From Legionella tucsonensis (GTDB lineage: Bacteria; Pseudomonadota; Gammaproteobacteria; Legionellales; Legionellaceae): a stretch of 64,000 bases of DNA. Below the pieces are notes generated by a model. The model ran no database searches and was not told the origin of the DNA. It saw nothing but the letters and a program-made list of their open reading frames with translations. Of the stretch, positions 42,785 to 46,857 are shown piece by piece. A program made the translations under genes and the position numbers. Position 1 is the stretch's first letter. Each line of letters starts with the position of its first letter. The DNA lies in assembly GCF_001468035.1 (NCBI RefSeq), contig NZ_LNZA01000001.1, positions 2,334,231 through 2,398,230 of the forward strand. The letters are read 5' to 3'.

Positions 42785-44857
42785 GTGTTATCTAACTCTT
42801 GTGAATCTCTAAGCGGTATCGGGCCAACACTCGCAGCAAAACTTGCCAAATGTGGAATTCATTCAGTGCGTGATTTACTTTTTCACTTGCCTTACCGTTA
42901 TCAAGACAGAACCCGAATAACACCCATTCAAGATTTACGTCCAAATGATTGGTGTGTAATTGCCGGGAGAATATGTAAAACAGAAATTAAAACAGGTAAA
43001 CGTGCCATGTTGCATTGTTACATTGAAGATAAAACAGGCATCATCAAACTGCAGTTTTTTCATTTTAATAAAAATCAAATTAATAATCTAAATAACAGCA
43101 CAATGATTCATGCATTTGGAGAAGTACGTGAATTCAACAATACCCTGATTATGACTCACCCTGAATATCAATTGCTCGATGATGAAAATGAATGTCAGGT
43201 TAATGAAACACTCACTCCAATTTACCCAAGTACACAAGGCTTAAGTCAAACACGTTTAAGACAGTTGGTAAATGTTGCCTTAAAAAGTTGTAAACAGGAA
43301 CTTCAGCAATTGGAATGGATGAGTGAAGAACAATTGCGAACAAATAACTTTTTCCCCCTGGGAGAGGCAATTCAATTATTGCATAAGCCTCCTCCAGATA
43401 TCTCGGTGCAATCGCTCGAAGAAGGTCAACATCCTGCCCTAAAACGGTTGGTTTTTGATGAATTGTTAGCACAGCGCCTCTGTATGCAATTTGCTAGAGA
43501 ATCACGTAATGCGTTATACGCTGTTGCATTGCCAGCAGATCACAACTTGAGTCAACGCTTTTTAGAGTCGCTTCCATTTGCTCTCACAAAAGCACAGCAT
43601 AGAGTAGCCCAGGAAATCAGCCAAGATTTAATGCAAACAAAACCCATGTTGCGCTTAGTACAAGGCGATGTAGGAGCAGGAAAAACCATCATTGCTGCTC
43701 TAGCAGCATTACAAGCGATTGCTAATGGACAACAAGTTGCTTTTATGGCACCCACTGATTTATTGAGCGAGCAACATGCCAATAATCTGATCCAGTGGCT
43801 TGAACCTTTGGGAATTAAAATAGTACGACTCAGCGGAAAAATGAAACTTAGCGAGCGGCGGATGGCATTTGCCGCACTTGCTGATCAAAGCTGTCAGTTG
43901 ATTATTGGCACGCACGCCTTATTTCAAGAGTCAGTGAGCTTTGCTCGCTTAGGCCTAGTCATTATCGATGAGCAACATCGATTTGGAGTAGAGCAAAGAT
44001 TGCTTTTGCAACAAAAAGGACAGCAAGATCAACTTATTCCTCATCAATTATTAATGACCGCCACACCTATCCCAAGAACACTATCCATGACTCACTTCGC
44101 CCATTTGGATATCTCAATTATCGATGAATTGCCTCCTGGGCGTATGCCCATTACTACGGCTGTTTTAAGCCAGAATAAACGGGAAATCGTTATTAATCGA
44201 TTACAAGTTGCCATTGCCAGTGGTCGTCAAATTTACTGGGTTTGTACGCTAATTGAAGAGTCAGAAAAACTACAATGTATGGCCGCAACTGAAACAGCAC
44301 ATGCATTACAAGAACAACTTCCCGGGGCTCGTGTAGGTTTGGTGCATGGACGGATGAAACCTTTAGAAAAAGAAGTAACTATGGCAGCATTTAAAAACGG
44401 CGAAATAAATTTATTGGTTGCCACAACAGTGATTGAAGTTGGGGTGGATGTCCCTAATGCCAGTCTTATGATTATTGAAAATGCAGAACGTCTTGGTTTA
44501 TCTCAACTTCATCAATTACGCGGCCGAGTAGGAAGAGGCACCACACAATCACATTGTATTTTGCTTTATCAATCCCCACTATCGCAACAAGGTTCTGAAC
44601 GATTAAAAATAATGCGTGCAACCAATGATGGATTCATTATTGCTGAGAAAGATCTGGAGTTAAGGGGTGCAGGAGAAGTGCTCGGAACTCGACAAACAGG
44701 ATATCGGCAATTTAAAATCGCAGATATCCAGCGTGATCGTAGCCTAATCCATCTTTTGCCCTCTACAGCAAAAGAACTTTTACAGAGCTCACCGCAAACT
44801 GCTCGCGATATTACCCAGCGATGGTTGGGAAATTTTGAACAATTTTTACAGGGATAA
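42785..44857 (+). CDS. recG: ATP-dependent DNA helicase RecG
   Basis: Branch-migrating helicase for stalled forks and recombination. Its 690 residues have the N-terminal wedge/OB domain (LFHLPYRYQDRT), Walker A in QGDVGAGKTIIA, Walker B in IIDEQHRFGVEQR, TATPIPRTL and the TRG-motif region near RDLxxRGAGEVLG (here KDLELRGAGEVLGTRQ). GTG start. The last gene before the DnaA-box region. Confidence 0.97.
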   Translation: MLSNSCESLSGIGPTLAAKLAKCGIHSVRDLLFHLPYRYQDRTRITPIQDLRPNDWCVIAGRICKTEIKTGKRAMLHCYIEDKTGIIKLQFFHFNKNQINNLNNSTMIHAFGEVREFNNTLIMTHPEYQLLDDENECQVNETLTPIYPSTQGLSQTRLRQLVNVALKSCKQELQQLEWMSEEQLRTNNFFPLGEAIQLLHKPPPDISVQSLEEGQHPALKRLVFDELLAQRLCMQFARESRNALYAVALPADHNLSQRFLESLPFALTKAQHRVAQEISQDLMQTKPMLRLVQGDVGAGKTIIAALAALQAIANGQQVAFMAPTDLLSEQHANNLIQWLEPLGIKIVRLSGKMKLSERRMAFAALADQSCQLIIGTHALFQESVSFARLGLVIIDEQHRFGVEQRLLLQQKGQQDQLIPHQLLMTATPIPRTLSMTHFAHLDISIIDELPPGRMPITTAVLSQNKREIVINRLQVAIASGRQIYWVCTLIEESEKLQCMAATETAHALQEQLPGARVGLVHGRMKPLEKEVTMAAFKNGEINLLVATTVIEVGVDVPNASLMIIENAERLGLSQLHQLRGRVGRGTTQSHCILLYQSPLSQQGSERLKIMRATNDGFIIAEKDLELRGAGEVLGTRQTGYRQFKIADIQRDRSLIHLLPSTAKELLQSSPQTARDITQRWLGNFEQFLQG

Positions 44858-45723
44858 AAAATATTTTTTAAAATAACCAAGTCAAGACTGTTTTTTATTT
44901 TTTTCTTTGTTAATATAATTACGTAGTTTTTCAATTCTCAAAACCATGCATTGTGGATAACTCTATCTAATTCAGTTCACATTTCCAAGTACACTCTTCA
45001 CATATATACTAAAAGAATCTTATTCTACAAGGATTTTTTACAGTTCAAATTTGTGATATCAAAAAATCGTTTATCCACAAAATCTGTGGATAATTCTGTG
45101 CACAGGATGTAGAACACCTTATAAAATCAGACTCATTTGTGATTGCTTTATAACTTTACAAAGCGCCCTTAAAATTATTTGGGAGTTTGCCCATTTTGTT
45201 TTTCATGAGTCGACAGATAGATAAATTTTGCACACAAAAAAATGCATGGATCTACAACAGATTTTTTTAAAAAATACCAAAGTCAAGACTGTTTTTTATT
45301 TTTTTCTTTGTTAAGATGGCCAGGAAGGTTTACTTCCCTTCAAAAACATACCTTGTGGATAACTTCTCTTACCATATCGTTTAATAAAAGCCCAAACATA
45401 CGAATATTTTCAAAAATATCCTTATCTTATAAGAATCACCGCCTATTTAGTTCTTATCACATCTAAATTATTTATCCACAAAATCTGTGGATAATCCTGT
45501 GAACATGATGTAAAACACCTTATAAAATCAGCTTAATTTCTTCCCTCTTAGAGCACAGCAGAGAATATTCCAGGGCAATTTCATTTACTGTAAGTTTTTA
45601 ATATAAAAAAATTCTTAACCATGTTTAAATAGACCAATAAAATTATAGATGAAACTGAACCTAGGATTTGTGAGAAAATCAAGAACTCCTTTTGACTTAG
45701 GTTACATTATTTAAAAATACAAT
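44858..45723. other. Duplicated DnaA-box region, candidate replication origin
   Basis: An 866-bp gap with no credible gene. It holds two copies, 401-402 bp apart, of the same array. Each has a 33-bp T-rich tract (44881-44913 and 45282-45314, identical), a DnaA box TGTGGATAA (44952-44960; 45354-45362), then a pair of inverted boxes TTATCCACA-5 nt-TGTGGATAA (45071-45093; 45472-45494) and a conserved tail ending ATAAAATCAG (to 45130; to 45531). All six boxes match the TTATCCACA consensus perfectly. The sequence between the shared blocks has diverged, so the duplication is old and the shared blocks are under selection. T-rich tracts next to inverted boxes resemble an oriC unwinding element. Confidence 0.7.
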
Positions 45724-46857
45724 ATGGCCCAGCACGACAGATATTGGCAAGCAAAAAAAGTAACCCTTTTGGGAGCTATTTCAAATGCGCTACTTGGCAT
45801 CATTAAACTCATTGGTGGATATTTTTTCCATTCCCATGCACTTGTTGCAGATGGAGTACATTCCTTATCCGATCTCATAACGGATGCGATGGTTTTATTT
45901 GCTTCTAAATATGGCAGTCTCGATGCAGATGCAAGTCATCCTTATGGACATCAACGTATCGAAACTGCAGCGACTTTATTGCTCTCTTTTTTACTTATTT
46001 TCGCAGGTATTGGTATCGCCTGGGATTCGATATATGACTTGCTTCATTTCAACTATCTCGCACCGAATTGGTTAACCCTTCCTATAATTTGTATTTCCAT
46101 CATGAGCAATGAAACTTTGTTTCACTATACTCTATATATTGGAAGGCGTATTAACTCCAAATTAATTACAGCAAATGCATGGCATCATCGTTCAGATGCA
46201 GCCTCCTCTCTGGTTGTTTTAATAGGTTTAATTGGCAGTCTCGCCGGGTTCAGCTATCTTGATGCCATAGCTGCCATTATAGTCGGCCTCATGATTGTTA
46301 AAATGGGTTGGGAATATGCTTGGAACAGTGTCAAAGAACTGGTAGATACCGCAGTCAGTCCGGAACTATTAACACGAATTGAAGAGGTGATCCAAAACGT
46401 AGATGGAGTTGAAAAAATTCATCAATTACGCAGTCGTTCTATGGGAGAAGATGTATTAATTGATGTACATATTCTCGTATCACCTAAAATATCGGTATCT
46501 GAAGGGCATTATATAGCACAACATGTTCACCATGAGCTCACAGATAAAATAGAAAGTGTCAAAGATGTAATAGTCCATGTTGATCCTGAAGATGACGAGC
46601 GCTTTTGTCCCTCATTGCATTTACCCAGCAGAAAAGTATTAGACGAATTATTAAACAAAGTTCATATTGATTTCCCACAAATTTTATTTTGGAATTTACA
46701 TTATCTGGACGGCAAAATAGGGATAGATATAGTCTGTGATGAAGCATTTTCTCAGTGGCAAGAATTGTACACTCGAGTAATTTTTGCATTAAAATTGCAG
46801 TCTGATGTTGTAGAAATTCGTTTATTTAGCTTGCATGAAGCCATGTATCACAACTAA
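45724..46857 (+). CDS. Cation diffusion facilitator (FieF-like) efflux transporter
   Basis: A 377-residue inner-membrane proton-coupled exporter of divalent metals. Six membrane helices in the first 210 residues, with metal-site Asp/His patterns in HSLSDLITD and NAWHHRSDAASS, and the family motif SHPYGHQRIETAA. A cytoplasmic dimerisation domain follows (about 215-290), then an extra domain of about 80 residues compared with FieF (300). The metal is probably Zn or Fe. Followed by a ZIP-type importer, so the two may balance the same metal. Confidence 0.92.
   Translation: MAQHDRYWQAKKVTLLGAISNALLGIIKLIGGYFFHSHALVADGVHSLSDLITDAMVLFASKYGSLDADASHPYGHQRIETAATLLLSFLLIFAGIGIAWDSIYDLLHFNYLAPNWLTLPIICISIMSNETLFHYTLYIGRRINSKLITANAWHHRSDAASSLVVLIGLIGSLAGFSYLDAIAAIIVGLMIVKMGWEYAWNSVKELVDTAVSPELLTRIEEVIQNVDGVEKIHQLRSRSMGEDVLIDVHILVSPKISVSEGHYIAQHVHHELTDKIESVKDVIVHVDPEDDERFCPSLHLPSRKVLDELLNKVHIDFPQILFWNLHYLDGKIGIDIVCDEAFSQWQELYTRVIFALKLQSDVVEIRLFSLHEAMYHN

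What the first reader, a model, noticed from the sequence alone, without database searches (positions are those of the whole stretch)
44858..45723. Tandemly duplicated DnaA-box array, candidate replication origin
Two 130-250-bp arrays, 401-402 bp apart, each hold an identical 33-bp T-rich tract and three perfect DnaA boxes, two of them as an inverted pair 5 bp apart. The spacers between conserved blocks have diverged while boxes and tracts are intact, which implies selection. T-rich tracts beside clustered boxes are the makeup of an oriC unwinding element. A duplicated array is unusual for an origin; an alternative is a datA-like DnaA-titration site.
Basis: partly seen in the sequence, partly recalled or inferred. 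Interest (0 to 1): 0.88.

Follow-up and report, generated by a model that had tools for sequence, protein, structure and literature searches.

The report
Duplicated DnaA-recharging-type site in Legionella
The doubled cluster of DnaA boxes is not where this Legionella chromosome starts to replicate; its boxes are arranged like the E. coli sites that recharge the replication starter protein DnaA, and related genomes carry several copies of the module, most of them facing a fixed way relative to replication.

Summary
In detail: two units 401-402 bp apart, between recG and a CDF transporter gene, each with an identical 35-bp tract and three perfect DnaA boxes. The origin reading is not: dnaA lies about 2.09 Mb away on the contig, and sampled GC skew switches there, not here. 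A weak third box follows each inverted pair. The triple (box I forward, 5 bp, box II reverse, 3 bp, box III reverse) has the orientation and spacing of the E. coli DARS cores, which turn ADP-DnaA back into ATP-DnaA. The unit follows recG in 25 of 29 Legionella-type loci, in 1-5 copies, and in 0 of 17 other recG loci. In 10 of 12 genomes a copy lies near or within the terminus bracket. Dispersed copies point with the replication fork in 37 of 40 placed cases, recG copies against it in 23 of 23. The tract, lone box and 174-193 bp distance to the core are not E. coli's, and no IHF or Fis consensus sits at a fixed place. Best reading: a DARS-type locus with its own layout, tandemly multiplied. DnaA binding and recharging are inferred, not shown.

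The parts
42785..44857 (+). recG, the gene upstream of the array
   Evidence: ORF; NCBIfam RecG, 1054 bits against a cut-off of 796
44858..45723 (.). intergenic region with the whole two-unit array
44879..44913 (+). unit 1 conserved tract (AAGTCAAGACTG plus T-rich part)
   Evidence: pattern hits
44952..44960 (-). unit 1 lone DnaA box, exact TTATCCACA
45071..45079 (+). unit 1 core box I, exact
45085..45093 (-). unit 1 core box II, exact
45097..45105 (-). unit 1 core box III, CTGTGCACA, 2 mismatches to TTWTNCACA
45280..45314 (+). unit 2 conserved tract, identical to unit 1
45354..45362 (-). unit 2 lone DnaA box, exact
45472..45480 (+). unit 2 core box I, exact
45486..45494 (-). unit 2 core box II, exact
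45498..45506 (-). unit 2 core box III, ATGTTCACA, 2 mismatches
45724..46857 (+). CDF cation transporter gene downstream of the array
   Evidence: ORF; NCBIfam CDF, 229 bits against a cut-off of 82

Best explanation
The array is a DARS-type DnaA-reactivating locus in two tandem copies. In each copy boxes I and II bind two DnaA molecules head to head and box III a third. By analogy with E. coli DARS, this assembly makes ADP-DnaA release its ADP, so that the free protein takes up ATP and serves the next initiation at oriC, which lies elsewhere near dnaA. The upstream tract and lone box, at a nearly fixed distance, are taken to be the regulatory half. Shown here: sequence, geometry, conservation, places and directions. 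Inferred: DnaA binding, nucleotide exchange and the role of the tract.
For: Same box orientation and offsets (14 and 12) as the triples in E. coli MG1655 DARS1 and DARS2 regions (definition of the core from PMC5742627 passages). The tract searched on its own in 12 genomes gave 82 hits, control 0: 69 have a listed core 174-193 bp on, 5 own-genome hits left out of the list also have one, and 2 more with 2 mismatches: 76 of 82. In 116 tract-anchored segments the best head-to-head pair has gap 5 in 109; box III fits best at gap 3. Class-wide the core (up to 1 mismatch) is in 229 of 369 genomes, and with a free gap of 0-20 the listed rows have gap 5, apart from three places at gap 17. Hda, which makes ADP-DnaA, is encoded: 283 bits against a cut-off of 195. 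Conserved after recG in 25 of 29 Legionella-type loci.
Against: No binding or activity data. No E. coli-type IHF or Fis consensus at a fixed place, though exact IHF sites are in 6 of 109 units between tract and core against 1.7 in shuffles. Box III is weak. The locus is not that of either E. coli DARS. 6 of 82 tract hits have no core.
Confidence: 0.7

Rival explanations
1. A datA-like site or plain sink that binds DnaA and lowers its free or ATP-bound amount.
For: High-affinity boxes clustered outside the origin; titration on the E. coli chromosome is reported (PMC12371093, passages).
Against: Geometry is that of the DARS core. datA needs an IHF site at set spacing (PMC4585315 passages), and no fixed IHF site was found.
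Confidence: 0.15
2. A spreading repeat family that carries DnaA boxes for its own use; the recG array would be one old insertion that has multiplied.
For: Dispersed copies differ between species, with a filled site in G021 and none at the matching place in G006; fork-directed orientation is what replication-coupled insertion could leave.
Against: Tract, lone box and core stay intact while spacers drift; the recG unit is in 25 of 29 loci; no clear ends or target repeats seen.
Confidence: 0.08
3. A structured RNA or hairpin formed by the inverted pair.
For: The pair could form a 9-bp stem with a 5-base loop and is intergenic.
Against: Among 24 distinct 23-mers, 14 cells break a stem pair, 6 keep it by a G-U change on one side and 1 has changes on both sides. 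Two Rfam hits only, 19.8 and 10.9 bits against gathering scores of 100 and 60.
Confidence: 0.03
4. The chromosomal origin of replication.
For: Densest group of exact boxes among the 73 in the genome list, beside T-rich tracts.
Against: dnaA and the skew switch are elsewhere; complete relatives have the array 16-40% of the chromosome from dnaA (from, computed by hand).
Confidence: 0.02

Closest known systems
E. coli DARS1 (bioD-uvrB)
   Same: Three boxes, box I opposite to II and III, offsets 14 and 12; intergenic; away from oriC.
   Different: Other genes beside it; single copy in that region; no tract or lone box of the Legionella kind noted.
E. coli DARS2 (rppH-mutH)
   Same: Same core offsets; this region holds two such triples (box I of the second, TTATCCCAG, has 3 mismatches and was read by eye from the printed sequence).
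   Different: Activated by IHF and Fis at set sites; no such fixed sites found here.
E. coli datA
   Same: Intergenic DnaA-box cluster.
   Different: Its boxes 2 and 3 with an IHF site are needed; no DARS core is described for it in the passages seen.

Membership tests
DARS | Core of three DnaA boxes, box I opposite to II and III, spacing as in DARS1 and DARS2 | tested here: met
DARS | Lies in an intergenic region between oriC and terminus | tested here: met
DARS | Regulatory region beside the core | tested here: inconclusive
   A conserved tract and lone box at near-fixed distance exist, but their function is unknown
DARS2 in particular | IHF and Fis sites at set distances | tested here: not met
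   No consensus at a fixed place in 109 units
DARS | Promotes release of ADP from DnaA | not testable with these tools
   No biochemical data
oriC | GC-skew switch, near dnaA in this genus | tested here: not met
datA | DnaA boxes with an IHF site at required spacing | tested here: not met

The most novel reading that the evidence does not exclude
Legionella runs a many-site DnaA-recharging system that reads fork progress: a conserved mid-arm array facing against the fork, a conserved copy tied to the terminus, and a changing set of fork-facing copies mostly around the terminus, so that passage of the fork through each copy doubles its dose or switches it and helps time the next initiation. The tract would be the polar element, sensed by the fork or by an unknown protein.
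Probability: 0.22. Interest if true: 0.82.

Novelty: new variant of a known kind. Interest (0 to 1): 0.62.

Why it matters
DARS sites are worked out in E. coli; the passages seen describe conservation among its relatives. A DARS-type locus with its own layout, in variable tandem copy number, with a terminus-linked copy and fork-oriented copies, would be a natural series for asking how number, place and direction of such sites set initiation. The core pattern in 229 of 369 sampled gammaproteobacterial genomes suggests that such sites may be common in the class and can be found by a simple pattern.

Tried and rejected
oriC: rejected. Plasmid origin: no match in the plasmid collection. RNA or hairpin. 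IHF and Fis consensus: no fixed place. dif-like site from a recalled E. coli consensus: 0 of 7 genomes, so termini were placed by skew samples alone. Empty-site comparison of one dispersed copy: noisy, no clear ends. Class-wide core loci: of the 30 loci returned, 0 match dnaA, bioC, bioD, uvrB, mutH, rppH, ygdQ or ptsP, and 2 match recG weakly (30-32% identity); so cores elsewhere are not in E. coli's contexts. Specificity within E. coli: not possible. Papers: none holds Legionella, DnaA, data and DARS as whole words; the listings showed no title or abstract start on this locus. One paper search was left unused, and many subscription papers are not in that library. Seen of papers: passages of PMC5742627, PMC4585315 (and section 3 part 1), PMC4245941, PMC12371093; the rest as listings. 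Fujimitsu 2009 was not read.

Against or limiting: three dispersed units point against the fork (G007 316934; G034 3262520, 3267101). Left out of the fork count: four dispersed and four terminus units inside the skew bracket, six tract hits without a core, and one hit on a second contig. G045 is the same chromosome as G019 by length and positions and was dropped. The class dispersed was assigned by exclusion; flanks were looked at for 28 units. The genomes are related and some share loci, so counts are not independent. The order-wide tract search had one reversed-control hit in each of 11 genomes, and the free-gap search control hits in 2 genomes. The skew sample at 440 kb was -0.007 and one window piece +0.008. 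The 116 segments come partly from loci fetched by the core pattern; one search is the cleaner test. The tree used 33 of 50 units. The alignment output was cut.

Full report
Observation. The stretch 44858-45723 between recG and a CDF transporter gene holds two units 401-402 bp apart, each with an identical 35-bp tract, a lone reverse DnaA box and a head-to-head pair 5 bp apart. In 20-base blocks the units agree at 18-19 positions in the tract, 20 in the core, 16 and 18 just after it, and 4-14 in the other full blocks. The genome has 73 exact TTATCCACA against 32 reversed. Confirmed.

Origin. The closest recG relatives returned are L. anisa, Legionella sp. PC1000, L. bozemanae and L. parisiensis (94-95% identity; nearer records may be left out). 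The window is C1:2334231-2398230 of a 12-contig assembly; dnaA is at C1:284981-286336, about 2.09 Mb away on the contig. In 20 stretches of 20 kb plus the window, skew is -0.059 at 270-290 kb and +0.069 at 290-310 kb, positive to 1.22 Mb except -0.007 at 440 kb, negative from 1.34 Mb on except +0.008 in the first 20 kb of the window; it is still positive at 1.22-1.27 Mb (values printed before it stopped). So the origin is near dnaA and the terminus near 1.3 Mb. In complete relatives the recG locus lies 16-40% of the chromosome from dnaA (positions; computed by hand).

The core. A review gives the DARS core as three boxes, equally spaced in DARS1 and DARS2, box I opposite to II and III, with head-to-head contact of I and II (PMC5742627 passages). 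In E. coli MG1655 the bioD-uvrB region has boxes at 2608+, 2622-, 2634- of L065, and the rppH-mutH region at 2136+, 2150-, 2162- and at 2452+, 2466-, 2478- of L064: offsets 14 and 12 in each (the box at 2452 has 3 mismatches and was read by eye). The window units have 45071+, 45085-, 45097- and 45472+, 45486-, 45498-: the same.

Tests. (a) The tract alone, 12 genomes: 82 hits, control 0; 76 have a core at the expected place (69; 5 own-genome hits cut from the list; 2 with 2 mismatches); 6 do not. (b) 116 tract-anchored segments held: best head-to-head gap is 5 in 109, 4 in 1, none within 2 mismatches in 6; box III at gap 3 has 1.81 mismatches on average, the next best gap 3.40. (c) Core with up to 1 mismatch: 229 of 369 genomes of the class, reversed control 0. 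With a free gap of 0-20: 157 of 369; the rows listed have gap 5 except three places at gap 17, which fits box I to box III (list cut; control hits in 2 genomes). (d) 0 of 30 of those loci carry a dnaA match. (e) The pair with up to 1 mismatch is in 44 of 45 genomes of the genus, control 0.

Anatomy. Tract to core is 174-181 bp in 27 and 184-193 bp in 42 of 69. Lone box to core is 105-109 bp in 27, 113-121 in 81 and 131 in 1 of 109; the lone box is exact to TTWTNCACA in 73 and has one mismatch in 36. The two groups differ by about 11 bp, close to one helical turn, which would fit a bent or looped complex (inference). IHF consensus: exact in 6 of 109 units between tract and core against 1.7 in shuffles, with one mismatch 42 against 35.3, no place shared by more than a few; Fis-like consensus also at no fixed place.

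Spread. A core lies within 4 kb downstream of recG in 25 of 29 Legionella-type loci (L001-L028, L033): five copies in 1, four in 1, three in 5, two in 4, one in 14. Without: L020 and L022 (1,151 and 572 bases held downstream; L022 has tract and lone box), L024, L027. Other recG loci: 0 of 17, three of them with less than 2,600 bases downstream. In a tree of 33 of 50 units, first units of the window, L. anisa, L. bozemanae and L. parisiensis group (0.965), second units group apart, while the units of L002 and of L005 group within the species: an old duplication with local turnover. The tract is in 86 of 143 genomes of the order as held, all in one family, with single control hits in 11 genomes.

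Other copies. A unit between genes that look like rimI and rlmD (names recalled; in G034 only the rimI side matched) was identified in 10 of 12 genomes, at most about 290 kb from the skew switch or inside its bracket; it was not identified in G002 and G008. In G007 the switch is at 0.95-1.06 Mb of 3.69 Mb and the unit at 0.90 Mb. A core without tract lies beside an FtsX-like permease gene in the three genomes looked at (L053, L136, L139). Other units are dispersed and differ between species.

Direction. With dnaA positions and skew brackets, recG units point against the fork in 23 of 23 (11 genomes), the rimI unit with it in 4 of 4 (4 more in the bracket), dispersed units with it in 37 of 40 (4 more in the bracket). 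In G008 the strand flips between 1.595 and 1.617 Mb, where the skew turns from +0.054 (1.576 Mb) through +0.011 (1.614 Mb) to -0.031 (1.640 Mb). Flanking genes do not explain it: for 25 dispersed units with both neighbours known, 25 of 50 neighbours are on the unit's strand. Against a 55% leading-strand share, estimated by hand, the binomial value is 4e-7, but genomes and loci are related, so it is a guide only. The recG direction may simply be inherited.

Judgement. By its core I call this a DARS-type site; it is not shown to be DARS1 or DARS2, and activity is unproved. An RNA hairpin is unlikely since box changes break the stem. In the searches I saw no report of this locus; conservation of DARS2 among E. 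coli relatives is in print.

Noticed in passing
L064:2136-2170 and 2452-2486 (E. coli MG1655, rppH-mutH): Two triples with DARS-core spacing in one intergenic region; a deletion primer quoted in PMC4585315 lies just before the first, so that one is probably the published DARS2 core.
   Followed up: partly
369 gammaproteobacterial genomes: The DARS-core pattern is in 229 of 369 genomes, mostly 1-4 places each, in contexts other than E. coli's in the 30 loci checked.
   Followed up: partly
L053, L136, L139: A core without tract between an FtsX-like permease gene and a gene of unknown function on the other side.
   Followed up: partly
L234:1811-3673 (G013): The rimI-rlmD locus carries two units either side of a 262-codon frame.
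   Followed up: no
G002:C1:2837189 and 2845609: Tract and core 8.4 kb apart, with a fieF-like gene after the core; the recG unit looks interrupted. L006 has about 2 kb between its first and second units.
   Followed up: no
L022:10070-10642, L016 unit at +3453, L112: A sequence like TTTCGCGACAGCGA appears where units are cut or begin; it may be the end of a mobile element.
   Followed up: no
units before the core, e.g. window:45016-45031: A semi-conserved near-palindrome like CCTTATTTTATAAGG lies about 50 bp before the core in many units.
   Followed up: no
G007:C1:949000-1060000: Skew switch at about 27% of the chromosome, so very unequal arms.
   Followed up: no
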